Shown here in pieces: positions 22,094 through 38,981 of a stretch of DNA of 64,000 nucleotides. A program made the translations under genes and the position numbers. Under the pieces are notes generated by a model, which had not been told where the DNA came from, ran no database searches, and saw only the letters and a list, made by a program, of their open reading frames with translations. Numbering within the stretch: the stretch's first letter is position 1; the number at the start of each line of letters is the position of its first letter. Source of the DNA: a virus; the IMG/VR virus record IMGVR_UViG_3300033149_004284, positions 22,288 through 86,287 of that record; one strand, written 5' to 3'.

Positions 22094-22834
22094 ATGAAGG
22101 AAATTCCCCTCACGCAGGACAAGGTGGCCCTGGTTGATGACCAGGACTACGAATGGCTTAATCAGTGGAAATGGACGTATACTTCTAGGGGCTGCACAGG
22201 CTATGCTTATCGGAATGTCTATCAAGGCTCCCGATATGTTAGGTGTGTCTTTATGCACCGTTTCATACTGAATCCACCTCCTGGCTTGGAGACAGATCAT
22301 ATCAATGGCAATGGCTTGGATAACCGCCGTTGCAATCTGCGTGCGTGCACACATATCCAGAATTCATGGAATAGCCGCAAGCAACAAGGCGCTACGAGTC
22401 AGTACAAAGGAGTCTCCTGGGCACGGAAAAACCAATGCTGGAGGGCGTTTATACATCAAGGTGGTCAGCAGATATCGTTAGGCAACTTTGACTCAGAGGA
22501 GGCCGCAGCGCTTGCCTACAACTATGCTGCGATCAAACTACGGGGTAGCCATACTCTTCTCAACCTTGTCCCTGACGGCCCTCCTCCATCCCGTCGACTA
22601 AAAAAGCGTCCAGGAAAGACTTCTCGCTATGTAGGAGTCTCCTGGTCTCGCCAACCGCAAGGTTGGCGAGCTGAGATTCGAGTTAAAGGCAAGCTCATAT
22701 ATCTGGGTTGCTTCACCTCAGAGGATGAGGCAGCGCGGGTCTGGAATGCGGCAGCGCTGAAGTGGAGAGGACCAGGAGCCAAGCAAAACATAGTACAAGG
22801 AGAAAGAGATGAATTTCTTGTTGAGCGAAGTTGA
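22094..22834 (+). CDS. HNH endonuclease with two AP2 DNA-binding domains
   Basis: 246 aa. Residues about 1-95 carry the HNH core (FMHRFILNPPPGLETDHING then NGLDNRRCNLRACTHIQN). Two AP2-type repeats follow: YKGVSWARKNQCWRAFIHQG and YVGVSWSRQPQGWRAEIRVK, each ending in an EAA-x-x-x-N segment. This is the architecture of phage HNH-AP2 homing endonucleases, which nick or cut DNA to spread their own gene. It is the first gene after the structured leader and the strong promoter, which is unusual for a free-standing homing gene, so a role in phage DNA processing is an alternative. Confidence 0.85.
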   Translation: MKEIPLTQDKVALVDDQDYEWLNQWKWTYTSRGCTGYAYRNVYQGSRYVRCVFMHRFILNPPPGLETDHINGNGLDNRRCNLRACTHIQNSWNSRKQQGATSQYKGVSWARKNQCWRAFIHQGGQQISLGNFDSEEAAALAYNYAAIKLRGSHTLLNLVPDGPPPSRRLKKRPGKTSRYVGVSWSRQPQGWRAEIRVKGKLIYLGCFTSEDEAARVWNAAALKWRGPGAKQNIVQGERDEFLVERS

Positions 22835-23948: not shown

Positions 23949-24476
23949 CTAGCTGCGTCTGGCCCCCCTCACTGCTGTCTTATGACCGATACCTATCTTC
24001 TCCTCAATCCAAATGCGTGTATCAGGATGCAGTTGCATCTTATCCTTATTCGCCTGGTACCAAGTCTTGGTATTGTCTTCGTAACCCTGTGCCTTGCCAG
24101 CTCCCCGCCAATCTGCCAACATCTCTTTTCGGTAGCGATCAGGCATAGGTAAGACCTTGATATCACCATCATCCTCTCGCAAAACCCACCATTGCCAGTG
24201 ATGCCTATTGCGATGGATGTGCTTGAGCCAAGCTAAGTCGAACTTGTCCTGCACCTCCTGTTTCGTCAGACCGAAGAGCCGCCCCTTGGTCCCTGGCGCG
24301 AATCTGTGCCAATCGGGATAGTTGCCGTAGAAGTATTTCGTATAGGGCCGCCATTCATCAGGCAGGAACTTGCTCCAATCATGCAAAAAGCCCAACCAAG
24401 GTATGCCTAACTTGCATGCCTCAACGAACACAAACCACTTATGTGCAATCATGTAGCGTAAATATTTCAGATACAT
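23949..24476 (-). CDS. DUF5662-like phage protein
   Basis: 175 aa. MYLKYLRYMIAHKWFVFVEA, KLGIPWLGFLHDWSKFLPDE, WRPYTKYFYGN and later WLKHIHRNRHHWQWWVL match the conserved start and His-rich centre of DUF5662, a widespread phage family of unknown function. The conserved HD in LHDWSKF and the HxHRNRHHW cluster suggest a metal-binding helical fold of the HD type (inference). One base downstream of the small-terminase-like gene and co-transcribed from the 25.1 kb leftward promoter. Confidence 0.78.
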   Translation of the reverse strand: MYLKYLRYMIAHKWFVFVEACKLGIPWLGFLHDWSKFLPDEWRPYTKYFYGNYPDWHRFAPGTKGRLFGLTKQEVQDKFDLAWLKHIHRNRHHWQWWVLREDDGDIKVLPMPDRYRKEMLADWRGAGKAQGYEDNTKTWYQANKDKMQLHPDTRIWIEEKIGIGHKTAVRGARRS

Positions 24477-25046
24477 CTACTGCCTCCTTGCCCACCTCGC
24501 CGCTGGATCAACCCAGGCTCCCTTGTTATCCACTGCCAACTGACTCTTCAGTACAGCCAATATCTCGTCCCTCAGCGCAAACCTCTGCTCCACGGGCAAA
24601 TGTCTGGCCACTATCTCGGTTACTTTCTTGGCCATGGTTACAGCCACACTGACAGGAATCAGATAGCGTCGCTCTTGCTCGATCTTGTTCTTGGTCTGAA
24701 CTAGCTTCCGAATGGTGTCCAGCAGCAAGGCTAAGGTCCTCAAGTCTCCCTCTTTCTCAGCCTCAACCACCTTCTCCCTCGCTAGGGCAATCTCCCCCCT
24801 CAATTCCAACACCTCAGGGTCTTCGAGCTCCTGGCTTGACAGTTCTACCAAGTCCACAGGCTCGGCTACTGGCAATCGCTTGTCATGCAACCAGCAATAA
24901 CCGACCCCCTTGTGGTTAGTTCTGGCTCCTGCCCATCTGTGACAGATGCCGTCTTTGCCTTCTTTGCAAGGCGCACCACAGATTCTGCTCGGATCATTGC
25001 GGGCTTTGGCAAGCCCAATTCTCACTTTGTCTGTTATCATGGGCAT
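24477..25046 (-). CDS. Small-terminase-like protein with Cys/His N-terminal motif
   Basis: 189 aa. CGAPCKEGKDGICHRWAGAR then TNHKGVGYCWLHDK matches the cysteine/His motif (CGAxTxxGxPC...AGxGTxHxGxGxCxxH) that opens many proteins encoded beside phage large terminases. The rest is helical with a coiled-coil-like middle (REKVVEAEKEGDLRTLALLL). Function as small terminase or packaging accessory is inferred. Unusually it is transcribed away from the large terminase, from the divergent promoter pair at 25.1 kb. Confidence 0.65.
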   Translation of the reverse strand: MPMITDKVRIGLAKARNDPSRICGAPCKEGKDGICHRWAGARTNHKGVGYCWLHDKRLPVAEPVDLVELSSQELEDPEVLELRGEIALAREKVVEAEKEGDLRTLALLLDTIRKLVQTKNKIEQERRYLIPVSVAVTMAKKVTEIVARHLPVEQRFALRDEILAVLKSQLAVDNKGAWVDPAARWARRQ

Positions 25047-25099
25047 GGTTCTTCTCCTAGATAGTCCATGGGGAGGCTCTGGTACTGTCTTGTAAGTAG

Positions 25100-25128
25100 A
25101 TACTAGCCGTTATTTCGGAATTTGTCAA
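25100..25128 (-). promoter_or_regulatory. Leftward promoter of a divergent pair
   Basis: Minus strand TTGACA (25128-25123), 17-base spacer, TAGTAT (25105-25100). Drives the small-terminase-like and DUF5662-like genes. Confidence 0.7.
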
Positions 25129-25141
25129 GCATACTTGACAA
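25122..25141. repeat. Palindrome joining the two divergent -35 boxes
   Basis: TTGTCAAG-CATA-CTTGACAA, perfect 8-bp arms. Each arm contains one -35 hexamer, so a protein bound here would block both promoters at once. The -35 hexamers are separated by only six bases. Confidence 0.75.
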
Positions 25142-25163
25142 TTCAGAAGTTTGCTGCTAAGAT
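25135..25163 (+). promoter_or_regulatory. Rightward promoter for terminase and head genes
   Basis: TTGACA (25135-25140), 17-base spacer, TAAGAT (25158-25163). The start codon of the terminase ATPase is only 15 bases after the -10, so the transcript would be nearly leaderless; initiation at a downstream Met (residue 6) is possible. Confidence 0.72.
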
Positions 25164-25177
25164 AGAGACGAGAAAGA

Positions 25178-26038
25178 ATGGAGACTAAAGGCATGGAGAC
25201 ATCCTGGGACGCTAAAAGTCCACGCGCAGCCCTTGTTGAAACCTTCCTGACTGGCCTTGGCGAGGAGAAGACCAAGCCCAGGCGAGCTCGTCGGGACTTT
25301 GCATACTTCATAGAATATGTCTTTTCTGATCAGAGAGGAAAGCCCCTCAAGCTTCAGTGGTTCCACAGGCAAATGATCAAATATCTGATGTTTGAGAAGA
25401 GGGTGCTGGTACTCTTGCCGAGATCGTGGGGGAAAAGTACCATAGGCTCAGTAGCCTATCCGGCCTGGCGTCTTGGGGTAAACCGAGACCTCAGAATTAT
25501 CATAGCATCAAATACTATAACGCAAGCTAAGTGGTGGTTATCTGAGATCGAGAACTTGATGCTCAAGAATGATAACTTTCACGAGGTATTCGGCTTCATG
25601 GTTCCCAAGCCTAGGACGCTTCGCTGGACTGATACCGAGAAGCGAGTACTTGGGCGTTCTCCTTACGCTATGCACTCCTCACTTCTAGCCACGGGCATTG
25701 GTAGTGCATTGCTAGGAGCTAGAGCGGATGTTATCATTGCCGATGATTGTATCGGTGAAAGAGAGGCCATTTCACCTATCCAGCGCAAGCAAGCCTCGAC
25801 CTGGTTCTGGAAAGTTCTCCTCAACACGTTAGAGCCTGATGGCCAGGTGGTCGTCCTCGGCTCTCCCTGGGGGCCCAATGACCTCTACAAGGAAATCCAG
25901 GAGAGATGGAAGGATCTCCCGTCTGAGATGGCTACCTGGCAACGAGGCGACTTCGTTATGCCAGGGGATTATCCCAGCCAAAGTCAACTGCGTAAGATGG
26001 AGCGAGAAGGCAGCCTGGACCCACTGAGGAATGTTTGA
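25178..26038 (+). CDS. terL (5' part): Terminase large subunit, ATPase part
   Basis: 286 aa. The packaging-motor ATPase: Walker A LLPRSWGKST (79-88), Walker B VIIADD (185-190), coupling motif VVVLGSP (224-230) and GPNDLYKEI after it. The protein ends shortly after the ATPase domain (DPLRNV), whereas typical large terminases continue into a nuclease domain, which here is a separate gene at 26574. ATP hydrolysis by this part would drive DNA into the prohead. The gene ends in the first of two copies of a 27-base repeat, suggesting rearrangement at the break. Confidence 0.88.
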   Translation: METKGMETSWDAKSPRAALVETFLTGLGEEKTKPRRARRDFAYFIEYVFSDQRGKPLKLQWFHRQMIKYLMFEKRVLVLLPRSWGKSTIGSVAYPAWRLGVNRDLRIIIASNTITQAKWWLSEIENLMLKNDNFHEVFGFMVPKPRTLRWTDTEKRVLGRSPYAMHSSLLATGIGSALLGARADVIIADDCIGEREAISPIQRKQASTWFWKVLLNTLEPDGQVVVLGSPWGPNDLYKEIQERWKDLPSEMATWQRGDFVMPGDYPSQSQLRKMEREGSLDPLRNV

Positions 26039-26090
26039 TAACTTAGCCCCACTAGAACCTAGACCCACTAGAGAATGTTTGATAACTTTG
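26021..26090. repeat. Duplicated segment at the terminase break
   Basis: CCACTGAGGAATGTTTGATA and CCACTAGAGAATGTTTGATA (followed by ACTT in both) are 44 bases apart, with a third partial CCCACTAGA between them. A further ATGTTTGA begins the inserted gene at 26101. Confidence 0.75.
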
Positions 26091-26100
26091 AGGAGGGAAA

Positions 26101-26589
26101 ATGTTTGACGACGTGATAGTAACTGACAAGTATGGAGCTCCAACAATGAGAGGGGAAGTGACCAGATATGGTCTCGTAACAAAGAATCCTGATGATGTCA
26201 GAGGTGGCCTATACTGCTGGTATAAGCTAAAAAAGGCAGATGAATTTCTCCTCGCCTACAGGATCGAGGCAAGTAAAAAGCCCGTAGTTGAGCACACAGA
26301 TGTGGAGGAGTGGTATCCTGTTACGCTCAGAGAGTCTTTCAAGATAGCAGGAAAAGGGCGATTCATGTTCGAGGAAGGAGAAGGGCCCCATATCTGGTTC
26401 AGACTCTCGACGTTTACCACACCTAACAGGCTGAGGGCCAGGATAGCCGCAGTCAGGTCTGGCTGGCAACGATTCAGGCTTGCAGTTAAGTTTCTAAGAA
26501 GACGCCTTCGGGAAACCCTGGAGATTCTGAAGCCTGTCTATCGAAGAAGTGCCCGTCTCACTAATCCCCTCAGATGGCCTGGATATTAG
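26101..26589 (+). CDS. Gene inserted between terminase halves, 162 aa, unknown
   Basis: GAGGAGGG precedes the ATG. Residues 1-100 are beta-rich (YGLVTKNPDDVRGGLYCWYK), and 105-155 form a strongly basic helix (RLAVKFLRRRLRETLEILKP). It overlaps the nuclease half by 16 bases. No LAGLIDADG, GIY-YIG or HNH motif is visible, so it is not an obvious homing endonuclease. It may be a moron gene, an intron-encoded protein of unknown type or a bridging subunit. Confidence 0.62.
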   Translation: MFDDVIVTDKYGAPTMRGEVTRYGLVTKNPDDVRGGLYCWYKLKKADEFLLAYRIEASKKPVVEHTDVEEWYPVTLRESFKIAGKGRFMFEEGEGPHIWFRLSTFTTPNRLRARIAAVRSGWQRFRLAVKFLRRRLRETLEILKPVYRRSARLTNPLRWPGY

Positions 26590-27506
26590 GGAGCATCGCC
26601 CCGATAGGCTGGGGGGAAGAGCATTGGAGGTTTATTATCGCTGGCATCTTGATCATACCTGCTCTAACGAACGACTCAGAAGGTAACCAGATCTCGAATT
26701 GGCCTGACCGCTGGCCTCTGAATCGTCTCCTGGCTAAGAAGCAGGAGATTGGTCCCATCCCTTTCTCTAGCCAGTTTATGCTTGATCCCGTTAACTTGGA
26801 ACACGCATTCCTCAAACGGGAATGGCTGCAATTCTACCTAGATGAAGACCTTCCTGACCTTATCAACTATATCGGAGTGGACCCGTCACCCTCAGGCAGG
26901 CAAGGTACTGACTACTTCGCCCTCGCTGTTCTAGGGGTAGATGTTGCCCATGTGGGATATCTCGAATCTGCCTACCGCATCCAAATCGATCCCCTGGAGC
27001 AGGCTCAGCGTATCCGCATTGAGGCGGGGGTCTGGCATCCAGCTTTAGTCATGGTAGAAGCCGTGGCAGCTCAAGCTCTCTTTACTCGCTATATGCTTCA
27101 GGACGTTACCTTTCCTCTCCGCGAGGGCACGACCAGATTTCCCAAGGAGCTTCGCTATGTCTCAATGTCTCGCTTATTCGCAAGTGGCAGAATCAAGATC
27201 AGAGGCAAGCGAAACAGTGACGGCGAGATCGTGCCTGCTGACTCTGTTGCCGACTTTGTTGAAGAGTGGGTAGGCTATGCGCCTAAGGGGCCTCGGGACG
27301 ACACTTTGGATGCTGTCGAGAAGGCTATTGAGGCCTCTCAGCTAATCTCAGGCAATCCTGTATTCCAGGCATCTCGCCCTGAAAATGTTCCTGTGGGTCG
27401 GGGGACGCATCCTGGACTTGCAAGTGGCGGCAACTTGCTGAGAGGGACCCGAACGCCATTTGGGAACAGGCAGCTGCGCTCGCGGCGATCCCTAGGGAGA
27501 CGATAG
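26574..27506 (+). CDS. terL (3' part): Terminase large subunit, nuclease part
   Basis: 310 aa. The beginning (PALTNDSEG...NWPDRWPLNRL, IGPIPFSSQFMLDP) matches the hinge region that normally follows the ATPase domain. The RNase H-like nuclease has the acidic triad in YIGVDPSPSGRQ (Asp103), VEAVAAQ (Glu162) and PRDDTLDAVEKA (Asp242/243). All catalytic residues are intact, so the product should cut concatemers if associated with the ATPase half. The ATG has no good ribosome site and lies inside the previous gene, so expression by coupling or by RNA splicing is suggested. Confidence 0.87.
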   Translation: MAWILGSIAPIGWGEEHWRFIIAGILIIPALTNDSEGNQISNWPDRWPLNRLLAKKQEIGPIPFSSQFMLDPVNLEHAFLKREWLQFYLDEDLPDLINYIGVDPSPSGRQGTDYFALAVLGVDVAHVGYLESAYRIQIDPLEQAQRIRIEAGVWHPALVMVEAVAAQALFTRYMLQDVTFPLREGTTRFPKELRYVSMSRLFASGRIKIRGKRNSDGEIVPADSVADFVEEWVGYAPKGPRDDTLDAVEKAIEASQLISGNPVFQASRPENVPVGRGTHPGLASGGNLLRGTRTPFGNRQLRSRRSLGRR

Positions 27507-27542
27507 GTTTAGCGAGATACACCTTCTACTGGGAGGAAGACA

Positions 27543-28121
27543 ATGACGAGAATACGTTCCTGGTTCCGAGACACAGTTGAACGAATAGTTGAAGACCATC
27601 TTGAGAGTCGCTTTGTTGAGATGCGTGGCGAGCTCTCCTCGAGTATCAGCCAGACCCAGAACGGCCTAGCTGCCGAGATCAAAGAGCGAGAAGACCGCAT
27701 TCTGGGCCAATTGAAGAATACCGAGAAGGCTATCCAGAGACGTCTCAAAGGCCAACTCACCTACTACCTTGAGAAGAAAATCAAGGCTCCTGATATCCTG
27801 GTTCAGGAGGAGCTCCAGCCTGAAATCGGAACTGACTATATCTTGGTAAACCTCGAGGTGAAAAACAACCAGCCTATCATGTTTGGGGGCAATCTGAATC
27901 TGGCCAATCTTGGGCGAGGGGACGCCGTGAATCTCGTCTGTCTTTATACCGATCATAAGGGTTCTGAGTCCACCTTCTTCAGACATGAAATCAGAGGCCC
28001 GCTTGATGACCCTTTCTACATTGTTGAGCCTCAAGTAGTAACTGCGGGAGCGAGAATAGTCTTCCGAGCTCTGCAGGGGCGCTCTCGACCTTTTACTTAC
28101 TGCTTTTATCGCTGGATATAG
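27543..28121 (+). CDS. Hypothetical protein, N-terminal coiled coil, 192 aa
   Basis: Residues 1-80 form a charged coiled coil (IKEREDRILGQLKNTEKAIQ); residues 95-192 form a beta-rich domain (DYILVNLEVKNNQPIMFGGN). Located between terminase and portal. It could be a small virion protein or an assembly factor. GGGAGGAAGAC precedes the ATG. No family recognised. Confidence 0.65.
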   Translation: MTRIRSWFRDTVERIVEDHLESRFVEMRGELSSSISQTQNGLAAEIKEREDRILGQLKNTEKAIQRRLKGQLTYYLEKKIKAPDILVQEELQPEIGTDYILVNLEVKNNQPIMFGGNLNLANLGRGDAVNLVCLYTDHKGSESTFFRHEIRGPLDDPFYIVEPQVVTAGARIVFRALQGRSRPFTYCFYRWI

Positions 28122-28193
28122 TTGTTGCGAATAGACTGATGGCGCAGGGGGCTCTGCTAAGTTGTGATAAGCTGGTCTAAGGAGATATCCATT

Positions 28194-29624
28194 ATGCCGA
28201 TTTTAGGGCGAATTGCAAAGAGACGACTGGTTGAGGCAGCGGTTCCTGTTGACGATACGGCTTCCGATACCTCTCGATGGCGCCGATTGACCGAGAAGGC
28301 CCCCAGGAACCTTTCTGACTACGACCACAAGCGAATGTTAGATATCGCCTTGTATCTCTATCGCTTCAATCCATTAGCCCATCGAGGCGTTGAGATCATG
28401 CGAGATTTCGTAGTGGGCAGTGGCATTCGTATTGAGGCCAAGGACAAATCCATCCAGTCAGTCATAGATAGGTTCTGGAACAATCCCGTTCATAAGATGG
28501 ATCGCCTGCTGGCCAGGATAGCCTTCGAGCTCAGTCTCTATGGGGAATTCATATCTCCCGCACTGGTAAACAGGCATAACGGGGATGTCGAGCTGAGTTA
28601 TATTTCCCCCCTCCAGGTCAAGGATGTCACTCTCAATCGAGGAAACCTTCTCCTGTTTGATTCAGTCGAGATCATGCCCACTGACATCTCTACCGAATCA
28701 TCGAAGCTCAAGGTCATCAACCTAGAGACAGATGTTGAGGCCCACCTCGATCCTGAGGACCCAAACTCGCCCTCCACCTATGGCTATCGAACTGGAGACT
28801 GTTTCTACTTCTCGGTGAACCGAGTAGGGGATGCCAGCCGTGGCCTGAGCGATCTCCTGGCTGTTGCCGATTTCGTAGACAGCCTCGACCAACTTATCTT
28901 CAATTCATTGGAACGCATGACCCACGAGACAGGCTGGCTCTGGGATATCGAGATGCAGGGGGCCTCAAATGAGCAATGCCAGCAGAAAGTCGCGGAGTTA
29001 GAGGCCGCTCCTCCCCGACCGGGCTCCTTCCTAGTCCACAACGAATGGGTCAAGTGGAACCCCATGAAGATCGGTCTGGAAGCCGAGAACGTCACTGACG
29101 AGTCTCTTCTCATTCGGAACTATGCCCTGGGTGGCATGGGAGTTCCCGTTCACTTCTTCAGTGAACCGCAAGGAGCAGGTCGTGCTGTCGCTGAGTCCAT
29201 GGCTGCTCCAGCCTATCAATCTCTGGAGTCTCGCCAGTCTGAAGTTGAGGGCTTTGTTCGGGAGATTCTGGACTTCGTCATAGACCAGAAACTCGTTCGG
29301 AAGATGCTAGACAGCAACTTGGATCGAAGCTATGATGTGATCATGCCAAAGATTTCCCTCCGCAATCTCCAGCGTACAGGAGGGGCCATGAACAGGACGG
29401 CGCAGGCTCTCAAGACCGCCCAAGACGAAGGTTGGATCGATAGCGAGCAAGGAAAGAAAGTCTTTGTGGCCATGCTGGAGCAACTTGGGCTGGGTGTAGA
29501 CCTCACTCCTAGCCAAGAGTTGCCAGGTGTCGCTTCTAGCCAAAGGCTACCGTCTGATGTAGGTTTTAGCCAGGCAGATGTAGGTGTCGCTTCTAGCCAG
29601 GAACTGCCCAAGGAGCTGCGCTGA
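28194..29624 (+). CDS. Portal protein
   Basis: 476 aa from the ATG at 28194 (AAGGAGAT). Order after terminase, size, and features such as RFNPLAHRGVEIMRDFVVG, LYGEFISPALVN, DCFYFSVNRVGDASRGLSDL and the long C-terminal helix region fit siphophage portal proteins, which form the dodecameric DNA gate and head vertex. The last 45 residues are an unusual Ser-Gln repeat tail (VASSQELP-type, three to four units), encoded by near-identical DNA repeats (GGTGTCGCTTCTAGCCA at about 29528 and 29582). The stop overlaps the next start (TGATG). Confidence 0.85.
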   Translation: MPILGRIAKRRLVEAAVPVDDTASDTSRWRRLTEKAPRNLSDYDHKRMLDIALYLYRFNPLAHRGVEIMRDFVVGSGIRIEAKDKSIQSVIDRFWNNPVHKMDRLLARIAFELSLYGEFISPALVNRHNGDVELSYISPLQVKDVTLNRGNLLLFDSVEIMPTDISTESSKLKVINLETDVEAHLDPEDPNSPSTYGYRTGDCFYFSVNRVGDASRGLSDLLAVADFVDSLDQLIFNSLERMTHETGWLWDIEMQGASNEQCQQKVAELEAAPPRPGSFLVHNEWVKWNPMKIGLEAENVTDESLLIRNYALGGMGVPVHFFSEPQGAGRAVAESMAAPAYQSLESRQSEVEGFVREILDFVIDQKLVRKMLDSNLDRSYDVIMPKISLRNLQRTGGAMNRTAQALKTAQDEGWIDSEQGKKVFVAMLEQLGLGVDLTPSQELPGVASSQRLPSDVGFSQADVGVASSQELPKELR

Positions 29625-31102
29625 TGCAAATTGGTCTTTTGCTTAGCTCCAAACACCATGCTGAGATGTTAGCATCTGGTAACAAGACCATGCTCATCAG
29701 AGCGAGGCGTTTCTACCGCTATGTCCGCATACCAGTCTACCTGCTGGCTGATCAGAAGTGTTATGCCAAGATGGTTCTTGGGTCTCCCCAAAAAATAGAC
29801 CTGAGTGGGTTTAGAGCATTGCGGAGTCAACACAGAGTAACTGAAAAGGAAAGGGAGCAACAGTGGCCTGACGAACTAGACTTCTACAGCTATAAAGTCC
29901 AGGTTCTCGAAACTTACGATCCGCCTAAGAAGGTTAAGTTCCCTCCCACCTCTCAGGCTTGGGTACGCCATTGGGAATGGTTAGACCGCCCTCCCAAGGA
30001 GCTCCATCTTGAGAAGGTGGCTGACCTAGAACACTATCATCCGTCCAAGATTCCTGACACAGCACGCGGCAGTGCTATCCTCAGGGACGACGCTCGGCTA
30101 CTCTTGGCCTACTGGTCGTCAAAACGGTCAGGCAAGGATGTCAAATATACCTACGACCTCTTGGAGCAGAAGTACACAGCCATCCTCCGTGAACTCGTTC
30201 GCAGGAGAGCAGCTCAGTTCAGTCCTCAGAACTATAAGCCTCATGCTAGAGATCTATTTGACAGAGCTGCGCGAACCCTCCAGTTGGAAGGTATTACTGT
30301 CCCACTCAGAAAGAGCTCGCATCTGAAAGGACTCACAGCCCTCCAGAATATGACGGATAAGGAACTCCTGGCTCACCATGACCACTTGCATCAAATGTAT
30401 GCTGAGGGCAAAGTGACTAAGGAGAGCATCGTCAATGCTCATATCTTTGCAGTCCAGGCAATGAGACATAGGGGCCTATCTCACAAGATCGAGGATGACC
30501 TTGACAGGGAGCTCCAGGGATCTGCTGCATCACGCCTCGTCCCCTTCGTCATCATAGACTCAATGGTTTGTCAAACTGGCTCTTCTGTCTACGACATCAG
30601 GCCCCCTCACGACTGCGACTTAGTGATACGCAGCGATGAGGAAGACTCCAAGATGACCGCAGCTATCCTTAAGGCCGTTAACCTCCCTCCATCAACCATC
30701 CACCGTATTTATGAACCCAGAGGCCCCTCCTTTGACTATGTGGCCCTCCTGGATTATGTAGCAGTGCCAGTAGCCTGGAAAGGTACCTGGACGAAGAAGA
30801 GCATCCGCCCCGAGGACATCCCCGAACACTCTTGGGCTATCTATCGGCAGTTGCCTCCTGCCGTCTTAGTCCACGACCCCTTCGTCACTCAAAGCAACAA
30901 TACTTTCTACGTCCGAGATGCTCGCCGCAACACTGGCATTGAGATCAAGCTCACCAGGCTGTTAGCGGCTAACCTCTCCTTCCGATGGCGCGGGGAGGAC
31001 GAAGCCATGGCAGGAACGCCGCTCTTTAAGTCTTTCCTGATTCCACATATACCTCTGAGGAGGGCCAAAGTCGATGAGCCTTTCTTCCGAAGATACTACT
31101 GA
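29624..31102 (+). CDS. ASCH-like domain fused to nucleotidyltransferase-like domain
   Basis: 492 aa. Residues 1-125 resemble the ASCH/PUA-like fold: MQIGLLLSSKHHAEMLASGN then KTMLIRARRF (G-x-K-T-x-x-x-R), then beta strands and YSYKVQVLETYDPP. A helical middle follows. Residues about 315-380 have TGSSVYDIRPPHDCDLVIRS and DYVALLDYVAVPVAW, like the G-S...D-x-D core and third Asp of the DNA polymerase-beta-type nucleotidyltransferase fold. The RNA or nucleotide link is inference. It occupies the position after the portal where many phages carry an internal head protein, and overlaps the portal stop. Confidence 0.6.
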   Translation: MQIGLLLSSKHHAEMLASGNKTMLIRARRFYRYVRIPVYLLADQKCYAKMVLGSPQKIDLSGFRALRSQHRVTEKEREQQWPDELDFYSYKVQVLETYDPPKKVKFPPTSQAWVRHWEWLDRPPKELHLEKVADLEHYHPSKIPDTARGSAILRDDARLLLAYWSSKRSGKDVKYTYDLLEQKYTAILRELVRRRAAQFSPQNYKPHARDLFDRAARTLQLEGITVPLRKSSHLKGLTALQNMTDKELLAHHDHLHQMYAEGKVTKESIVNAHIFAVQAMRHRGLSHKIEDDLDRELQGSAASRLVPFVIIDSMVCQTGSSVYDIRPPHDCDLVIRSDEEDSKMTAAILKAVNLPPSTIHRIYEPRGPSFDYVALLDYVAVPVAWKGTWTKKSIRPEDIPEHSWAIYRQLPPAVLVHDPFVTQSNNTFYVRDARRNTGIEIKLTRLLAANLSFRWRGEDEAMAGTPLFKSFLIPHIPLRRAKVDEPFFRRYY

Positions 31103-32186
31103 GATTCGTGGTCTCCTGTATCGAGATAGGCAGACTAAGGTGGCATTAAGGTTTCTCAAAAGGATAAATGTATCCCTAGAAGCCATTAGGCGAAACCTCG
31201 CAAGAGCAGAGGAGGCCCTTGCGGATGAGCCTCTATCTAGCAATGTGAGACTTCTAGCCGGCAAGTTTCTGCTAGCGGAGGAAGACATCCCTCTGGAGGA
31301 TTTGGGTATTCTGACAAAGACTCCAAATCTAGCCAGCATCATCATTCTGAACTACAATACTCTCAAGATCACCTCTGACTGTATCAAAAGCGTTCTAGCC
31401 TTGACTGAATACCCTGCGGAGATGATAGTAGTTGATAACGGCAGCACGGATGGCAGTGTGGCCTGGCTCAAGAAACAGAATTACCTAACTTTGATATCTA
31501 ACAAGAATAACCGTGGCTGGACTGCCGCAAACAATCAGGGCATCAGAGTCTCCAAAGGGGCCTACTGCCTGTTACTTAACAGCGATACCATTGTGAGGAC
31601 AAGGGGCTGGCTCAAAGCCATGATTCGCCTCGCTCAGCCCCCTGACGTGGCGACGGTCGGGGCCAAGCTTCTTTACCAAGATGGTACCATTCAGCATATA
31701 GGGGGCAGCATCCACGACGTCAATCCCTTCCATCCCTTTGACGGAGCGCCTGCCGACATTCCCGAATCACTTAAAGTCAGAGAAGTCCCTTTCAACACGG
31801 GGGCCTGTCTCCTTATCAAGAAATCCGTCATCGAGCGGGTGGGCTTACTTGACGAGAAATATGTGTTCGGTTATGGTGATGTGGACTATGGCTTGAGGTG
31901 TCTTGAGGCAGGATTTAGGAATCTCTACTGTCCATCGTCTATCCTAACTCATCTCTGGGCTTACACTCAGCGAAAAACAGGCAAGTGGATTCCATCTGAG
32001 AGCTTTGCCAGGTACAAACAGAAGTGGACTGACAAGACGCCCGCTCTCTCTAAAAAGGTTGACATGGATTTCAGGTGGCCTGATTCTGCACAGTATATCA
32101 GAAGGACTGGTCCGGGCAGTCATATAGCAACTATTCGCAAGAAGGAGAGCGCTATGACCTGGGGGGCATTAAATGAAAACCAATGA
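31074..32186 (+). CDS. Family 2 glycosyltransferase with helical N-terminal extension
   Basis: 370 aa. Residues 1-85 are a charged helical region. From about 86, ASIIILNYNTLKITSDCIKS, MIVVDNGSTDGSVAWLKKQ and LLLNSDTIVRTRGW (DxD-type) form a GT-A fold of the rhamnosyltransferase-like branch, with FGYGDVDYGLRCLEAGFRNL near the end. Transfers a sugar from a nucleotide donor. First gene of the glycan island, overlapping the preceding gene by 29 bases. Confidence 0.85.
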   Translation: MSLSSEDTTEIRGLLYRDRQTKVALRFLKRINVSLEAIRRNLARAEEALADEPLSSNVRLLAGKFLLAEEDIPLEDLGILTKTPNLASIIILNYNTLKITSDCIKSVLALTEYPAEMIVVDNGSTDGSVAWLKKQNYLTLISNKNNRGWTAANNQGIRVSKGAYCLLLNSDTIVRTRGWLKAMIRLAQPPDVATVGAKLLYQDGTIQHIGGSIHDVNPFHPFDGAPADIPESLKVREVPFNTGACLLIKKSVIERVGLLDEKYVFGYGDVDYGLRCLEAGFRNLYCPSSILTHLWAYTQRKTGKWIPSESFARYKQKWTDKTPALSKKVDMDFRWPDSAQYIRRTGPGSHIATIRKKESAMTWGALNENQ

Positions 32187-33024
32187 GTTTGAGCCTAAAG
32201 TCTTTGTCAAGAACGCAAAGGAATCTGGGCAGCAGGTATCTCTAACCATGGTCACCTTTAATCGGTGGAATCTCACTCAGCAGAGTCTCTCTTCCATTTT
32301 CGAGCACACTCATCTGCCATACATTCTGACTGTTGTCGATAACGGGAGCTGGGACGAGACGAGGGAAAACCTACAGGAACTCAGGCGGTCTGGTAAGATT
32401 AACAGATTGATTCTTCTCCCCGAGAACCGAGGCATTGACATGGGGAAGAACTTCGGCCTGCGAGCTACCCAGGGCCAGGCTAGCTGGTACTGCTGTATCG
32501 ACAACGATATCAGAGTCAGTCCCTACTGGCTCAGCTACCTCTGCTATACATCTACTCTCCCTCGCCTTGGCATAATCGGCTGCAATGTTCAGGGATTTGG
32601 CACTCCTGGAGGCCCGAGCTGGTTTACACCCACGCACTGGAAAACTGTGAAAGGAGTTGTCCTAGACAACTGCCCTAATCCAGGTGGAATCTATGTCATC
32701 AGTGCAACTACATTCGAGAAGCTAGGCTTCTTCGTTGAGAGGGGCCTCTACGGTCTAGGGGACAGCCAATACTACTCACGGGAGTTTCAACATGGCCTCA
32801 GAAGCGTCTATGTGAGAAATGTCGATTGCAGAGAGATACCTGATGAGGACTTTGTGATGGCAGACGGTACGTCGTATAGGACTTTCAAGGCGACTTCTCA
32901 CAACTCTATGCGTCAGAAGGTCAGAGAAATGGCATCTCAAGGCATTGATATCCACCCAAAGCATTACGAGACTAGAGTAACGGCCCAAGAAGTTGAGAAG
33001 TATACCTGGACGCCAGAATCATGA
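32173..33024 (+). CDS. Family 2 glycosyltransferase
   Basis: 283 aa. VSLTMVTFNRWNLTQQSLSS, ILTVVDNGSWDETRENLQEL, then CIDNDIRVSPYWL (acidic donor/metal site) and a C-terminal region with ERGLYGLGDSQYYSREFQHG. GT-A fold. Overlaps the previous gene by 14 bases. Acceptor unknown. Confidence 0.83.
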   Translation: MKTNEFEPKVFVKNAKESGQQVSLTMVTFNRWNLTQQSLSSIFEHTHLPYILTVVDNGSWDETRENLQELRRSGKINRLILLPENRGIDMGKNFGLRATQGQASWYCCIDNDIRVSPYWLSYLCYTSTLPRLGIIGCNVQGFGTPGGPSWFTPTHWKTVKGVVLDNCPNPGGIYVISATTFEKLGFFVERGLYGLGDSQYYSREFQHGLRSVYVRNVDCREIPDEDFVMADGTSYRTFKATSHNSMRQKVREMASQGIDIHPKHYETRVTAQEVEKYTWTPES

Positions 33025-33050
33025 CCTTAGATACTTAGGGGTCCCCAACT

Positions 33051-33527
33051 ATGATTTTAGATGCAGGATCAGGCATGGCATCGAACCCAAGAGCCAACAT
33101 ACTCATGGACAAATATCTTCAAGGAGACAGTACCTCTCGTATAACGGGCACTCTTATGATTCGCAAAGGACAGACTATGATTTGTGGTGACCTTGAGGCC
33201 ATGCCATTTCTGGATAAGTCCTTCGACATTGTTATTTGCTCTCAGACGCTCGAACATGTTGATAATCCTGAGAAAGCCTGTGCTGAGTTGGTGCGGGTAG
33301 GAAGGAGTGGTTTCATAACTGCGCCAAACGAGACAGTAGAAAGGCGTCGATATGAGCGTCGCGAGAAGCTCTATCACAAGTGGCTTATCAAGCAACGGGG
33401 CACTCACCTCGACTTCTATCTCAGAAGTCTCGTTCCAAGCCTCCCGATGATGGAGCATCCTAGCCAGGGCGTGGATATGGCTTGGAAAGGGAGCTTCACT
33501 TGGTCAGTGTTCAGAGAATCGCCATGA
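33051..33527 (+). CDS. SAM-dependent methyltransferase (type 11)
   Basis: 158 aa. MILDAGSGMASNPRANILMD is motif I; FDIVICSQTLEHVDNPEKAC is the typical motif IV region of type 11 methylases, followed by RVGRSGFITAPNETVERR. Shorter than usual (about 200 aa), so the N-terminal lead helix is missing or minimal. Likely O- or C-methylates a sugar intermediate (inference from context). Confidence 0.75.
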   Translation: MILDAGSGMASNPRANILMDKYLQGDSTSRITGTLMIRKGQTMICGDLEAMPFLDKSFDIVICSQTLEHVDNPEKACAELVRVGRSGFITAPNETVERRRYERREKLYHKWLIKQRGTHLDFYLRSLVPSLPMMEHPSQGVDMAWKGSFTWSVFRESP

Positions 33528-34516
33528 CAAGACTCCCCAGAGTCCTATTCGTTAGCATAGCTCCGTCTCTCCACACGGAGTTCTGGGCTGCTGGCTTTAT
33601 GAAGGCCCTTCGCAAAGTTGCCGTTCCACTGGCTTTCCCTTTCAGGAAAATGGCTCATGACCACGGGGCAGCCTACATGAACGAGACGCTAGTGGAAACT
33701 GCTCTGGAGTTTCGTCCTGACCTGATCTTTATTAGGAAGGGGGAAAGCATTCTCGGCTCTAGCATTAAGACGCTCAGGGATTCCCTGCCTGCTTATATCA
33801 TCTACTATTGTGGGGACTTCCGTCTCAATCCAGTCTCCTTCATCGTCGATATTGGACGATACGCAGATTGTACCATTTTCAACAACGAGGACGAGAAGGT
33901 TGCTGATAGATATCAGGTTGCGGGTGTGAGACATGTGGGTCCTTGGTGGGACGGTGGAATTGACCCAGAAGTCTTTTGCCCGCAAGACGTACCCAGAGCC
34001 TGGGACCTAGCCTTCATGGGCACTAACGTCCCCTTGCCTCACAGGGGCTATCAGGTACGTCGCCAACTACTGGAGGCTATCGTCGAGAGTAACTACTCTC
34101 TTCACATCTTCGGTGGGGCTGAAGGCTGGAAGTACCTCCACACGAATACCCACCCGTTCGTTTATGGCCCTGCTTTCGCTAAGGCCTGTTCTCAATCGCG
34201 TATCACTCTGGGCGTCAATGGAGTGAACGACATGTATCTGTATGCTTCCTGGCAACGTACTTTCAAGTCAATGGCCAGTGGAGCGTTTCACCTTACTCAC
34301 TATGTCCCTGGACTGGAGACGTTCTTTGAGAACCGCAAGCATCTGGTCTGGTTCATCTCCATACCTGAGGCGATGAGTCTCATTGCTTACTATCTCACTC
34401 ACGACGAGGAACGTGAAGAAATAGCCATGGCAGGCCGACAGGAGGTTCTTGCTCACTTCACTTGGGACGATGCTGTCGCAAGGCTTATGAGGATTTGGCA
34501 AAGTGACTGCTGTTGA
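33524..34516 (+). CDS. CgeB-like GT-B glycosyltransferase
   Basis: 330 aa from the ATG at 33524 (ATGA overlap). RVLFVSIAPSLHTEFWAAGF, RPDLIFIRKGESI, CTIFNNEDEKVADRYQVAG, DLAFMGTNVPLPHRGYQVRR and LHIFGGAEGWKYL follow the two Rossmann domains of CgeB/DUF3880-type glycosyltransferases. The C-terminal segment includes FKSMASGAFHLTHYVPGLET (donor-binding) and EAMSLIAYYLTHDEEREEIA. Likely a sugar transferase acting on a glycan chain. Confidence 0.82.
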   Translation: MTRLPRVLFVSIAPSLHTEFWAAGFMKALRKVAVPLAFPFRKMAHDHGAAYMNETLVETALEFRPDLIFIRKGESILGSSIKTLRDSLPAYIIYYCGDFRLNPVSFIVDIGRYADCTIFNNEDEKVADRYQVAGVRHVGPWWDGGIDPEVFCPQDVPRAWDLAFMGTNVPLPHRGYQVRRQLLEAIVESNYSLHIFGGAEGWKYLHTNTHPFVYGPAFAKACSQSRITLGVNGVNDMYLYASWQRTFKSMASGAFHLTHYVPGLETFFENRKHLVWFISIPEAMSLIAYYLTHDEEREEIAMAGRQEVLAHFTWDDAVARLMRIWQSDCC

Positions 34517-35186
34517 ACAATACCGTAGGGACTTCGCCACGTACATGAGCCTTCCTGGAGCTGAGAGGTGTAGACTCCAAATGTATCCTCGTCTTGAGGA
34601 TAAGACCGCATCAACTCCCCTGGATGCCTATTACTTTCGACAAGATACCTGGGCGTTCAAGCGGATAGTAGACCTCAAGCCTAGCAGCATAGTAGATGTA
34701 GGATCGACTGCGCTCCTCGTGGGAATTCTTGCCCAGATGTTTCCTACAACGAGTATCGATATAAGGCCCATTCCAGTATCTCTTCCTGGATTAACATGTA
34801 GGCAAGGCTCGATCACTAATCTCCCCTTCAAAGACGCCTCAGTTGAGCTCCTGAGCAGCCTATGTGTGATAGAGCATATAGGTCTAGGTCGATACGGCGA
34901 CAAGCTCGATCCGCTCGGTAGCATCAAAGCCTGCAAGGAGATCTCGAGGGTGCTCAAGCCTGGTGGACATTTCATAATGAGCACTCAAGTGAGTCATACC
35001 CCTGCCCTCTGCTTCAATGCGCACCGAATCTTCACGCAGGCCCAAGTTCTGGATATGTTGCCAGCCTTCTCGGTAACGGATGAGGCGTTCTTCTTCCCTC
35101 GGCCTGGCAATGCAGAAGACATAGAGGCACTCACGGGTTTCAGGTTCTGCTTCTGGTGCGTAGACTTGGTTAAGGAGTCAGCATGA
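34503..35186 (+). CDS. SAM-dependent methyltransferase (DUF268-like), GTG start
   Basis: 227 aa. SIVDVGSTALLVGILAQMFP is motif I; CRQGSITNLPFKDASVELLS and SLCVIEHIGLGRYGDKLDPL are typical of DUF268-type sugar-pathway methylases, then EISRVLKPGGHFIMSTQV. The GTG at 34503 overlaps the previous gene by 14 bases and ends in ATGA overlap with the next gene. Role in sugar methylation is inferred. Confidence 0.78.
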   Translation: MTAVEQYRRDFATYMSLPGAERCRLQMYPRLEDKTASTPLDAYYFRQDTWAFKRIVDLKPSSIVDVGSTALLVGILAQMFPTTSIDIRPIPVSLPGLTCRQGSITNLPFKDASVELLSSLCVIEHIGLGRYGDKLDPLGSIKACKEISRVLKPGGHFIMSTQVSHTPALCFNAHRIFTQAQVLDMLPAFSVTDEAFFFPRPGNAEDIEALTGFRFCFWCVDLVKESA

Positions 35187-35986
35187 CGCTCTCGGTTGTA
35201 ACTCCTAGCTACATTAACAACCAGCAACGAGCTGATTGGGCCAGAGACTCTCTGGCTTCCCTCAGGGAAACTATCGGCGACGGCTACTTACATGTTGTGG
35301 TGCTTGACAAATCCCTTGAATGGAATATTATTGCTCAGGCAATCTATAACCAGCCTAATGTAATGCTCATGCAGCGTCCCAAGCCTCTTGGCAATACTTC
35401 AGCTTTGCTAAAGGCCGTGAAGGAATCTCGCAAGTTGGGAGCAGATCTCTGTTTTGTCCATATGGACGATAACATCTATGTCCCCGAATTCGGACCTCTT
35501 CTCAGATATGCCCAGGACGCTTTCAGCAACGATAGGGAGTTGCAAGAAGTGCTCTTTGTTGGCTACCCGATCCTTATAAAGAGGCATAGCAAACCACTTC
35601 TTGGCAATCGCACAGGCCTAACTATCGAGGAGAATCAAGTCTCTTTCGATACCATACAGTTGCACCCTACTCGCTGTACGGATTATACTCTCTGGTGGTC
35701 TTATTTTCATGACCGAATGGTGGACGGGCGATTTTGGGCAGTTGTCATGTGGATGGCTCTCTACCGAGCTGAGTTCTTGGAGAGTGTCCTTACACTTGCC
35801 CCTACGGGCCGGACGCTTGGTCAGGTTGAATCTTACTACAGAAACAGAAGCAACTGGGAGAGACTATCCCATCGCTTTCCAGGAAAGCTCGGTTACATAA
35901 ACATGCAGTTCGGCGGTTTGGAGATGCACCATCATAGTCAGGAATGGTGTGAGATGATCCGTTTTCCTAATACGCCTGTGAGGTGA
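35183..35986 (+). CDS. Glycosyltransferase-like protein (GT-A)
   Basis: 267 aa. LSVVTPSYINNQQRADWARD at the N-terminus and CFVHMDDNIYVPEFGPLLRY (D-D-N in the metal position) point to a GT-A glycosyltransferase, though divergent from classical GT2. RPKPLGNTSALLKAVKESRK separates them. C-terminal part is aromatic and unrecognised. ATGA overlap with the previous gene. Confidence 0.7.
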   Translation: MTLSVVTPSYINNQQRADWARDSLASLRETIGDGYLHVVVLDKSLEWNIIAQAIYNQPNVMLMQRPKPLGNTSALLKAVKESRKLGADLCFVHMDDNIYVPEFGPLLRYAQDAFSNDRELQEVLFVGYPILIKRHSKPLLGNRTGLTIEENQVSFDTIQLHPTRCTDYTLWWSYFHDRMVDGRFWAVVMWMALYRAEFLESVLTLAPTGRTLGQVESYYRNRSNWERLSHRFPGKLGYINMQFGGLEMHHHSQEWCEMIRFPNTPVR

Positions 35987-36022
35987 GACATATAGGAGAA
36001 GACTTACCTGTGAGGTGAAGGA

Positions 36023-36661
36023 ATGACTTACAGAGAGAATCCAGAACTAGGTCAGGACATGGTTAAGTTTGCCTTTCATCGTTGGCAGCAAGGAGAATAT
36101 CTCTTAGAGCCTCCTCAGCGTCAAATCTACGAGAATATTGCGGTCAGAGCGAAAGGCAAGACGGTCTGTGATATAGGCTCTGGAGCGGGACTGGGAACTA
36201 CTATCCTAGCACAAAGGGCTCAGTCAGTTATTGGCATCGAGAAGGTTGCGTCTTCCGTCAGGTTCTCTAGGAAATGTCATCCCCTAACAAATGTGCAGTT
36301 TCTGAATGAGGATATAGGGAAGTGCTCTCTTTCTGACAACAGTTTCGATGTAGTGGTGGCGGTTGAGGTGATAGAGCATATCGCAAACTACCAGGCAGCA
36401 CTGGATCAGATGGCTCGAATTCTGAAAGAGTCTGGAACCCTATACATCTCGTCTCCTAACAGGAATCAAGATATTAGAGGAGGAGCGTCAGGCGCAGGCC
36501 CGCCAAGGAACAAGTATCATGTTCGAGAGTGGACAGCCGAGGAGTTTCGGCATATTCTTCTCTCGCGCTTCAGTCAGGTTAGGCTTTCTGACTATACCCT
36601 TGACCCTTGCCTAGACTCCTGTACGCGAGTCTCGCCAGTTATCGCGATCTGTCGAATATGA
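36023..36661 (+). CDS. SAM-dependent methyltransferase (type 11)
   Basis: 212 aa. TVCDIGSGAGLGTTILAQRA (motif I), VIGIEKV, NVQFLNEDIGKCSLSDNSFD, VVVAVEVIEHIANYQAALDQ and ILKESGTLYISSPNRNQ are all canonical. A short direct repeat CTGTGAGGTGA flanks the 36-base gap before the gene. Ends in an ATGA overlap with the next glycosyltransferase. Confidence 0.85.
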   Translation: MTYRENPELGQDMVKFAFHRWQQGEYLLEPPQRQIYENIAVRAKGKTVCDIGSGAGLGTTILAQRAQSVIGIEKVASSVRFSRKCHPLTNVQFLNEDIGKCSLSDNSFDVVVAVEVIEHIANYQAALDQMARILKESGTLYISSPNRNQDIRGGASGAGPPRNKYHVREWTAEEFRHILLSRFSQVRLSDYTLDPCLDSCTRVSPVIAICRI

Positions 36662-37326
36662 GAACTCTGTGGATCGTTATTCCAGCAAAAGATGAGGCTG
36701 CTACTATTGCAGACCTAGTTGCCGAAGCCGCCCACTACGGAACGGTGTTAGTAGTTACCAGTGGGCCTTCAGACGATACTGGCCCAAGAGCTGCCAGCGC
36801 GGGAGCCCAGGTAATCTACAACGGCCAGAGCATTGCAGGAAAGATAGTCACTGGCTGGCAGAGAGCCCTCGACAACAATGCGACACGAGTCATAGTCATG
36901 GATGCAGGCGGATCGCATAGGCCATCAGATATCCCCCGTCTCCTGGCAGCAGAGGCTGACATCGTAATAGGCAGTCGGTTTGTGGCTGGAGGCCAATATC
37001 ATGGCAGATCGTGGCGCAGGGTATGCAGTCAAGTCATGGCTCTGCTCTGCAACCTAGCCCAACCAGGTAAACAGGTCCATGACTGGTCTAGCGGCTTCAG
37101 GTGTTATTCGGTAGAAGCAATTGGGCAGCTACTAGCCGTCCATTATAAATCTGATATGCACGCTTGGCAAATCGAGGTGCTAGGCTGGGCTAGGCGCTTG
37201 CACCTTTCAGTTGAGGAAGTCCCTATACAGTATACTGCTGGGCACTCGTCTCTCTCCTGGGATGGGGCTCTCAGGGCTCTCAATATATTGTTAGACATCT
37301 TGCTCCGCAGGTGGGTAGTCGGATGA
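36658..37326 (+). CDS. Dolichol-phosphate-mannose synthase-like GT2
   Basis: 222 aa from the ATG at 36658. LWIVIPAKDEAATIADLVAE, VLVVTSGPSDDTGPRAASAG, RVIVMDAGGSHRPSDIPRLL (DAGG metal site) and IVIGSRFVAGG match DPM1-like enzymes that attach a sugar to a polyprenyl phosphate. HDWSSGFRCYSVEAI follows. No C-terminal membrane segments are present, as in soluble DPM1. In this island it could prime a lipid-linked sugar. Confidence 0.84.
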   Translation: MRTLWIVIPAKDEAATIADLVAEAAHYGTVLVVTSGPSDDTGPRAASAGAQVIYNGQSIAGKIVTGWQRALDNNATRVIVMDAGGSHRPSDIPRLLAAEADIVIGSRFVAGGQYHGRSWRRVCSQVMALLCNLAQPGKQVHDWSSGFRCYSVEAIGQLLAVHYKSDMHAWQIEVLGWARRLHLSVEEVPIQYTAGHSSLSWDGALRALNILLDILLRRWVVG

Positions 37327-38396
37327 TATTCTACCTTGATACATACATTACTGACGAGCCTCTCCATCCTGCGTTTGTTTGGCCAAACAGGGAGATCAGG
37401 AACTCCTGTCCCCAGTATAAGATGCCACGGAGAATAGATATCACAAAGTACACGCTTGCGAGTTATAAGATGATTCCGTGGACACATGTTGTCATCGCAT
37501 ACGATGTTGCTGATAAGGATGATGAAAGCACGTTCCTGGACTTTGTGCAAGAAGTTTTCCCAGACGCAGATGTTAGTCGGCCTCGCTCCTCTAACCAGAA
37601 GACGTACAGGGCAAGAGTGGAGCAAGTTTGCAGTTTTGAGGATGACTTCATCTTTTATGCACCTAACAACGATCATCCCCTCATAGCAAGCAATCTCAAT
37701 CACCTGCCCAAGTTACTCAAAAAGGCTTCAAGGTTCTCACAAAACTACCCATTTGTCTCCGTTGTCTACTCGCACTTCAGTGAGTTCGTCAACGCGCCTG
37801 TCGTTGGGAGTCCTTTCTACAGACAGTTCTCTAGCGACTCACGCATAGTAGAAGACGACGAGATTGCTACGAGCTTTGTGAGATTCAATGGCGACAACTC
37901 TTCTATCCAGATCGTCAATAGGAATCTCCTGCAACACTGGTTTTGCTCACATGATCTCGGTGATGCCAGAATCATCAGAGCAGAAGATGTTCGCAGGTTT
38001 CTTCCAACTCCTAACCAGTTGATGATAGTGCCCAAGAAGGAGCTCTGTGCGCACTTTGACGGCTACTCGCATACAACTGGTATCACTAAGATCAGTCCTG
38101 ACCAGATTCCTCCTCTATTCATTCCAACAGGGTTCTTCGACAGCTCGATTCGGATCGCCTACGGATATCCAGAATACCGAGATGGCTGGGTAAACATAAA
38201 CCCTTCTGCGAGGGATTTCAGTTTCCGCGACCGAAAGACGGGCACAGATCTGAAAATTGGTCTTCAGGACATACCTCTTTTCTGGAAGAGCAGAATCGCA
38301 GAAATAGACATCAATGTGAATGCCGACCTCGAGCGAATTAAGGAGGGCAGAGAGAAATACTTTGAGACAGTTCGTAACCCCTGGAGGAAAGCCTAG
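37323..38396 (+). CDS. Putative glycosyltransferase, unclassified, 357 aa
   Basis: Start at 37323 by ATGA overlap. It has IFYLDTYITDEPLHPAFVWP, WTHVVIAYDVADKDDESTFL and CSFEDDFIFYAPNNDHPLIA; the ED-D-F segment could be an acidic metal site as in GT-A enzymes. A later FVRFNGDNSSIQIVNRNLL is also typical of sugar transferases. I do not recognise the family, and assignment relies mainly on neighbours. Confidence 0.55.
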   Translation: MIFYLDTYITDEPLHPAFVWPNREIRNSCPQYKMPRRIDITKYTLASYKMIPWTHVVIAYDVADKDDESTFLDFVQEVFPDADVSRPRSSNQKTYRARVEQVCSFEDDFIFYAPNNDHPLIASNLNHLPKLLKKASRFSQNYPFVSVVYSHFSEFVNAPVVGSPFYRQFSSDSRIVEDDEIATSFVRFNGDNSSIQIVNRNLLQHWFCSHDLGDARIIRAEDVRRFLPTPNQLMIVPKKELCAHFDGYSHTTGITKISPDQIPPLFIPTGFFDSSIRIAYGYPEYRDGWVNINPSARDFSFRDRKTGTDLKIGLQDIPLFWKSRIAEIDINVNADLERIKEGREKYFETVRNPWRKA

Positions 38397-38971: not shown

Positions 38972-38981
38972 GAGTAGCGCC

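What the first reader, a model, noticed from the sequence alone, without database searches (positions are those of the whole stretch)
25178..27506. Large terminase split into ATPase and nuclease genes around an unrelated gene
The ATPase half (Walker A, Walker B, coupling motif) stops at 26038 and the hinge plus intact nuclease (Asp103, Glu162, Asp242/243) begins in another frame at 26574, with a 162-aa gene in between. The break is bordered by a 27-base repeat in two copies and a third ATGTTTGA. The nuclease gene lacks a ribosome site. Since packaging is essential, the halves must work as two subunits, be joined by RNA splicing, or the insertion must be recent damage.
Basis: partly seen in the sequence, partly recalled or inferred. 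Interest (0 to 1): 0.72.

Follow-up and report, generated by a model that had tools for sequence, protein, structure and literature searches.

The report
Phage packaging motor split in two
This phage makes the engine half and the DNA-cutting half of its packaging motor from two separate genes with another gene between them; a related phage has kept the same arrangement and other phages reached it independently, although cutting the T4 motor at this joint stops it working in the laboratory.

Summary
The large terminase of an 86-kb phage contig is two open frames: ATPase (25178-26038) and linker plus nuclease (26574-27506). A 162-aa gene (X) lies between them and every frame of the gap holds stops. 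On a profile of 132 intact terminases the halves cover positions 36-242 and 248-470, so no catalytic part is missing. It is neither recent damage nor a misassembly. A 91-kb IMG/VR phage (L197) has the same split, with 70% (ATPase) and 64% (nuclease) identity, both halves under strong purifying selection, and a diverged homologue of X between them. The ATPase's C-terminal tail, which is not terminase-like, is as constrained as its core. Three further contigs (L068, L202, L142) are split at the same linker around other genes; tree tests reject a single origin. No intron core, intein or homing endonuclease was found in these gaps. Best reading: a terminase working as two separately translated subunits. 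Two-gene terminases are known in Arthrobacter cluster AY phages (consecutive genes), so this is a variant: genes interposed, repeated origins. It matters because T4 gp17 cut at its linker keeps both enzyme activities but loses translocation (PMC3012670). Assembly of the halves is inferred, not shown.

The parts
24477..25046 (-). Divergent 189-aa gene, perhaps the small terminase subunit (by position only; no family match)
   Evidence: 67% identical to the gene in the same place in L197; no Pfam family and only insignificant PHROG matches
25178..26038 (+). Terminase large subunit, ATPase half (Walker A, Walker B, coupling motif), 286 aa
   Evidence: phrog_38 266-473, E 2.5e-48; 70% identity to L197; model closest to phage terminase ATPases, best chain 8dgc_E Z 23.9
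25907..26035 (+). C-terminal tail of the ATPase half (residues 244-286): not terminase-like, conserved in L197; candidate docking element
   Evidence: 234 of 300 shuffles of 249-286 score as well on the terminase profile; 40 codons 244-283: nonsynonymous 18.0/95.0, synonymous 20.0/25.0, Fisher p 2e-8
26014..26088 (+). Tandem repeat, two copies of 31 nt, 87% alike, 44-bp period, over the ATPase stop and the start region of X
   Evidence: lies on one side of X only
26101..26589 (+). Gene X, 162 aa, unknown function, between the two halves
   Evidence: Ribosome site GAGGAGGG; homologue in L197, E 7e-7; pN/pS 0.67, Fisher p 5e-5; codon usage like other genes of the phage
26574..27506 (+). Terminase linker plus RNase H-like nuclease half, 310 aa from the ATG; starts inside the end of X (16-nt overlap)
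   Evidence: phrog_38 468-705, E 1.1e-27; 64% identity to L197; profile positions 248-470
26626..26639 (+). Possible alternative start of the nuclease: GGAGG (26626-26630), 6-nt spacer, ATC (26637-26639) that aligns with the L197 ATG
   Evidence: residues 1-21 score weakly as coding and are not terminase-like
27543..28121 (+). Conserved 192-aa gene after the nuclease
   Evidence: 52% identical in L197 at the same place
28164..29624 (+). Portal protein
   Evidence: phrog_10963 E 1.3e-34; 66% identity to L197

Best explanation
This is a functional terminase large subunit encoded as two proteins. The ATPase gene ends after the coupling motif with a short conserved tail of its own; the nuclease gene starts at the linker and carries the whole RNase H-like nuclease. 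Each half is translated from its own frame, the nuclease probably coupled to the gene before it, whose end it overlaps by 16 nt in both known members. Shown: two frames, complementary halves, long-term purifying selection on both, the same split in a relative, repeated independent origin. Inferred: the halves assemble non-covalently on the portal into one motor, with the conserved ATPase tail, the nuclease's linker or X serving as docking parts in place of the peptide bond.
For: Complementary halves with no catalytic part missing. The same split in L197 with 70% and 64% identity and no other phrog_38 match in either record. Purifying selection on both halves (Fisher p 9e-41 for the ATPase core, 1e-28 for the nuclease) and on the tail (2e-8). 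Splits at the same joint in L068, L202 and L142, with a single origin of all five rejected (p-AU 0.0003). Nuclease starts lie at or over the end of the preceding gene in the window, L197, L202 and L142. Two-gene terminases exist in isolated Arthrobacter phages (PMC11920828).
Against: T4 gp17 split at its linker loses translocation (PMC3012670). No RNA or protein data. Only one close relative is known. The window's nuclease start is uncertain (no ribosome site at its ATG). No interaction between the halves has been shown or modelled.
Confidence: 0.85

Rival explanations
1. The gene is interrupted by an intron carrying X, and splicing restores one terminase message.
For: terL is spliced in phage ICP1, confirmed by RNA-seq and RT-PCR (PMC10448857). 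The break falls inside an essential gene and the split homology abuts almost exactly.
Against: No group I or II core at E up to 1 in 24400-28400, none in the L068 gap, none at E up to 0.1 in L197, L202, L142 and others. An intron at the homology boundary would contain the ATPase tail, which is constrained as protein (p 2e-8). Gap length and content differ between window and L197 (535 and 760 bp). No homing endonuclease domain in X. A splice after the tail, by an unknown intron, is not formally excluded.
Confidence: 0.06
2. Recent damage or an assembly chimera: a broken terminase in a defective phage.
For: Metagenome contig in a bin 85.5% complete with 3.35% contamination; a local tandem repeat at the 5' edge of X.
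Against: An independently assembled contig (L197) has the same split at 64-70% identity, with strong purifying selection on both halves. Several other contigs are split at the same joint. Module gene order is conserved with L197.
Confidence: 0.02
3. The halves have parted ways: the ATPase alone packages DNA and the nuclease acts as a free terminase nuclease, without forming one complex.
For: In T4 the separated domains keep their own ATPase and nuclease activities (PMC3012670).
Against: In T4 the C-domain carries the translocation groove and separated domains do not translocate (same source). The linker stays with the nuclease half here and is conserved.
Confidence: 0.05
4. A fractured gene rejoined by a split intein (protein trans-splicing).
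For: Fractured phage genes with split inteins and a gene between the halves are a described arrangement (Dassa et al. 2009, seen here only as a reference; the arrangement itself is from general knowledge).
Against: No intein domain in the window halves (Pfam). In L197 terminase homology starts at residue 4 of the nuclease, which leaves no room for a C-intein.
Confidence: 0.01

Closest known systems
Arthrobacter cluster AY phages (BillyTP, BlueShadow): terminase ATPase and nuclease domains in two genes
   Same: Large terminase as two separate genes, in phages isolated as plaque formers (PMC11920828, PMC12820723)
   Different: There the genes are consecutive and overlap by 17 nt; here X lies between them. 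The BillyTP proteins do not match this terminase profile. By eye their break lies after the linker, here before it; that was not aligned.
Single-chain large terminases of the phrog_38 group
   Same: Both domains are homologous; order ATPase then nuclease; same catalytic residues
   Different: One polypeptide there, two here
ICP1 terL, split by an intron
   Same: An essential terminase in two open frames (PMC10448857)
   Different: There RNA splicing joins the exons; no intron core is found here
Phage ribonucleotide reductase gene split by a homing endonuclease gene
   Same: An essential enzyme working as two peptides after a gene came between (noted in PMC10448857)
   Different: The interposed gene there is a homing endonuclease; X shows no such domain
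T4 gp17 separated into domains in the laboratory
   Same: Cut at the linker between ATPase and nuclease (PMC3012670)
   Different: The artificial T4 halves do not translocate; these natural halves are maintained by selection

Membership tests
Tailed-phage large terminase (phrog_38 group) | ATPase with Walker A, Walker B and coupling motif | tested here: met
   phrog_38 266-473; invariant motif columns shared with relatives; model closest to terminase ATPases
Tailed-phage large terminase (phrog_38 group) | RNase H-like nuclease with the acidic residues | tested here: met
   phrog_38 468-705; D103, E162 and D243 kept in L197; the RNase H fold itself was not modelled
Tailed-phage large terminase (phrog_38 group) | Both domains in one polypeptide (the canonical single-chain form) | tested here: not met
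   Two frames with stops in every frame between them; so it is a two-gene form, not a canonical single-chain member
Two-gene split terminase (Arthrobacter AY type) | ATPase and nuclease domains in separate genes | tested here: met
Two-gene split terminase (Arthrobacter AY type) | The two genes are consecutive | tested here: not met
   X lies between them in the window, X and a 111-aa gene in L197
Two-gene split terminase (Arthrobacter AY type) | Descent from the same split | tested here: inconclusive
   BillyTP proteins score below zero on this profile; no tree across both groups was possible
Intron-split terminase | Recognisable group I or II intron core | tested here: not met
   Rfam
Intron-split terminase | Spliced message | not testable with these tools
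   Needs RNA
Fractured gene with split intein | N- and C-intein parts at the break | tested here: not met
   No intein domain; L197 nuclease homology starts at residue 4

The most novel reading that the evidence does not exclude
The packaging motor of this phage group is a hetero-oligomer in which the covalent ATPase-nuclease hinge has been replaced by non-covalent docking, through the clade-specific ATPase tail and possibly through X as a third motor subunit encoded between the halves. That would show that the hinge peptide is not essential for a terminase to translocate DNA.
Probability: 0.3. Interest if true: 0.75.

Novelty: new variant of a known kind. Interest (0 to 1): 0.56.

Why it matters
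Models of the packaging motor pass force from the ATPase to the nuclease/translocation domain through a covalent hinge, and T4 gp17 cut at that hinge no longer translocates. Natural phages that have cut it at least twice, and kept it cut under selection, offer ready-made proteins for asking whether the covalent link is needed and what replaces it. It also warns annotation pipelines that score terminase as one gene.

Tried and rejected
Close-relative pattern searches of IMG/VR with each single window protein found nothing; the relative came only from an alignment search. No phage record in the collection matches X, nor does any solved structure by sequence. Two alignments were too diverse to search with. 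AlphaFold of X from two sequences gave mean pLDDT 51 and was not used. The idea that the ATPase tail duplicates the linker was tested and dropped: on the large profile it scores no better than shuffles (234 of 300). A reported 944-aa open frame for L068 proved to be read-through of about ten stops. L116, L123, L128 and L140 look like frameshifts, partial or degraded copies and were not counted as splits. Three papers opened for 'split into two' with terminase concerned other matters. No terminal overlap of 20 bases or more shows that the contig is circular.

Full report
WHAT IS THERE. The window is part of an 86,287-base contig (C244) in a 2.57-Mb metagenome-assembled genome whose phylum has only eight genomes in the collection. 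It carries phage genes. The packaging module reads: a divergent 189-aa gene on the minus strand (24477-25046), the ATPase gene (25178-26038), gene X (26101-26589), the nuclease gene (26574-27506), a 192-aa gene and the portal. phrog_38, the family of large terminases, matches the ATPase protein over 266-473 and the nuclease protein over 468-705, and no other match to it is found in the bin. Each frame of the gap contains stops, so no simple read-through or single frameshift joins the halves.

WHERE THE BREAK LIES. Intact relatives were collected from the genome search, phage records, IMG/VR and GTDB genomes, and 132 non-redundant ones were turned into a profile. The ATPase protein aligns to positions 36-242 and the nuclease protein to 248-470. 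The catalytic parts are therefore complete, and the break falls after the coupling motif and before the WPE-type linker segment, which stays with the nuclease half. ATPase residues 249-286 do not resemble terminases (234 of 300 shuffles score as well) and neither do nuclease residues 1-21 (235 of 300); nuclease residues 22-42 do (0 of 300). The predicted ATPase model has a well-ordered core and a poorly ordered tail. Its closest solved structures are the PhiV-1 terminase (Z 23.9, rmsd 2.3, 217 residues) and T4 gp17 (Z about 19).

THE RELATIVE THAT DECIDES. One IMG/VR contig of 91 kb (L197, IMGVR_UViG_3300029813_000617) has the same module: divergent gene, ATPase (70% identical), a 140-aa homologue of X (E 7e-7), an additional 111-aa gene, nuclease (64% identical), the 188/192-aa gene, an HNH endonuclease that the window lacks at that place, and the portal. 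It too has no other phrog_38 match. Synonymous sites are close to saturated (pS 0.67-0.80), while pN is 0.15 for the ATPase core, 0.19 for the ATPase tail and 0.24 for the nuclease; the portal gives 0.22. The excess of synonymous over nonsynonymous change is overwhelming for both halves and clear for the 40 tail codons alone (Fisher p 9e-41 for the ATPase core, 1e-28 for the nuclease, 2e-8 for the tail). The split is therefore old and both proteins are maintained. X evolves faster (pN/pS 0.67) but still below neutrality (p 5e-5), and its codon usage matches the phage's long genes.

OTHER SPLITS. Among the 80 best IMG/VR relatives of the ATPase, the 80 best GTDB relatives and 78 IMG/VR relatives of the nuclease, most terminases are one frame: 54 of 81 rows (the window included) were plainly intact in the first set and 145 of 158 in the other two; most of the rest are cut by contig ends or match only part of the profile. 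Besides the window and L197, three are cleanly split: L068 and L202 (viral contigs, gaps of 1317 and 1108 bp, sharing a homologous small gene in the gap, E 1e-7) and L142 (a Saprospiraceae bin, 632-bp gap). In all five the ATPase protein's homology ends at profile 242-254 and the nuclease's starts at 238-250. A tree of the ATPase domain needs three changes of state. Holding all five splits together is rejected (p-AU 0.0003), as is holding the window pair with the L068 pair (p 0.0015); the L068 pair with L142 is borderline (p 0.0455). So the split arose at least twice and probably three times, always at the ATPase-nuclease joint. These tests assume that the groups were named beforehand, which they were (by the split), and a quick tree with some long branches.

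HOW IT MOST LIKELY WORKS. The simplest reading is two subunits. In both members of the window's clade the nuclease start overlaps the end of the gene before it by 16 nt (26574-26589; L197 4001-4016), and in L202 and L142 it sits at the stop of the previous gene, which suggests coupled translation (inference). In the window the ATG has no ribosome site, but GGAGG precedes ATC 26637, which aligns with the L197 start; which one is used is open. The conserved ATPase tail is the best candidate for a docking element that replaces the peptide bond, and X the second candidate; neither role is shown.

RIVALS. A defective or chimeric gene is excluded in the main by L197. An intron is disfavoured: no group I or II core at E up to 1 in the window's module or in the other loci, a protein-constrained tail where an intron at the homology boundary would lie, and unlike gap contents. 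It is not formally excluded without RNA data, since terL splicing is real in ICP1 (PMC10448857). Split inteins are excluded in L197 for want of room, and no intein domain is found in the window. No homing endonuclease domain was found in the gap proteins scanned.

AGAINST WHAT IS KNOWN. [quoted passage not shown] also PMC12820723), and I read the BillyTP record. The present group differs in having genes between the halves, in belonging to another terminase group (BillyTP proteins do not match this profile), apparently in the exact break point, and in its repeated origin. [quoted passage not shown] Natural phages that live with this cut make that result a question that can be tested directly. 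I found no paper describing a terminase whose halves flank another gene, within an open-access library and ten searches.

LIMITS.

Noticed in passing
window 31074-39860: A run of genes that look like glycosyltransferases and methyltransferases (by eye) lies between the portal and the later virion genes.
   Followed up: no
window 22094-22834; L197 5510-6127: HNH-type endonuclease genes sit near the packaging module in both phages but at different places (an HNH plus AP2 gene upstream in the window; another HNH gene between the 188-aa gene and the portal in L197).
   Followed up: partly
window 26574-26660; L197 4001-4016: The nuclease start overlaps the preceding gene by exactly 16 nt in both phages although the preceding genes differ; the window has 21 extra codons before the conserved start, whose sequence (ATGGCCTGGATATTAG) resembles the L197 start (ATGGCTGGAATCTTAG).
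   Followed up: partly
L068 4004-4357 and L202 2785-3090: Two other split-terminase phages share a homologous small gene (E 1e-7) between their terminase halves.
   Followed up: partly
L128 3923-4567: A lone ATPase half in a Planctomycetota bin next to a gene that looks like phosphoglycerate kinase, with no nuclease seen: probably a prophage remnant.
   Followed up: no
window 23949-24476: DUF5662 protein (PF18907, E 7.5e-41) beside the packaging genes.
   Followed up: no
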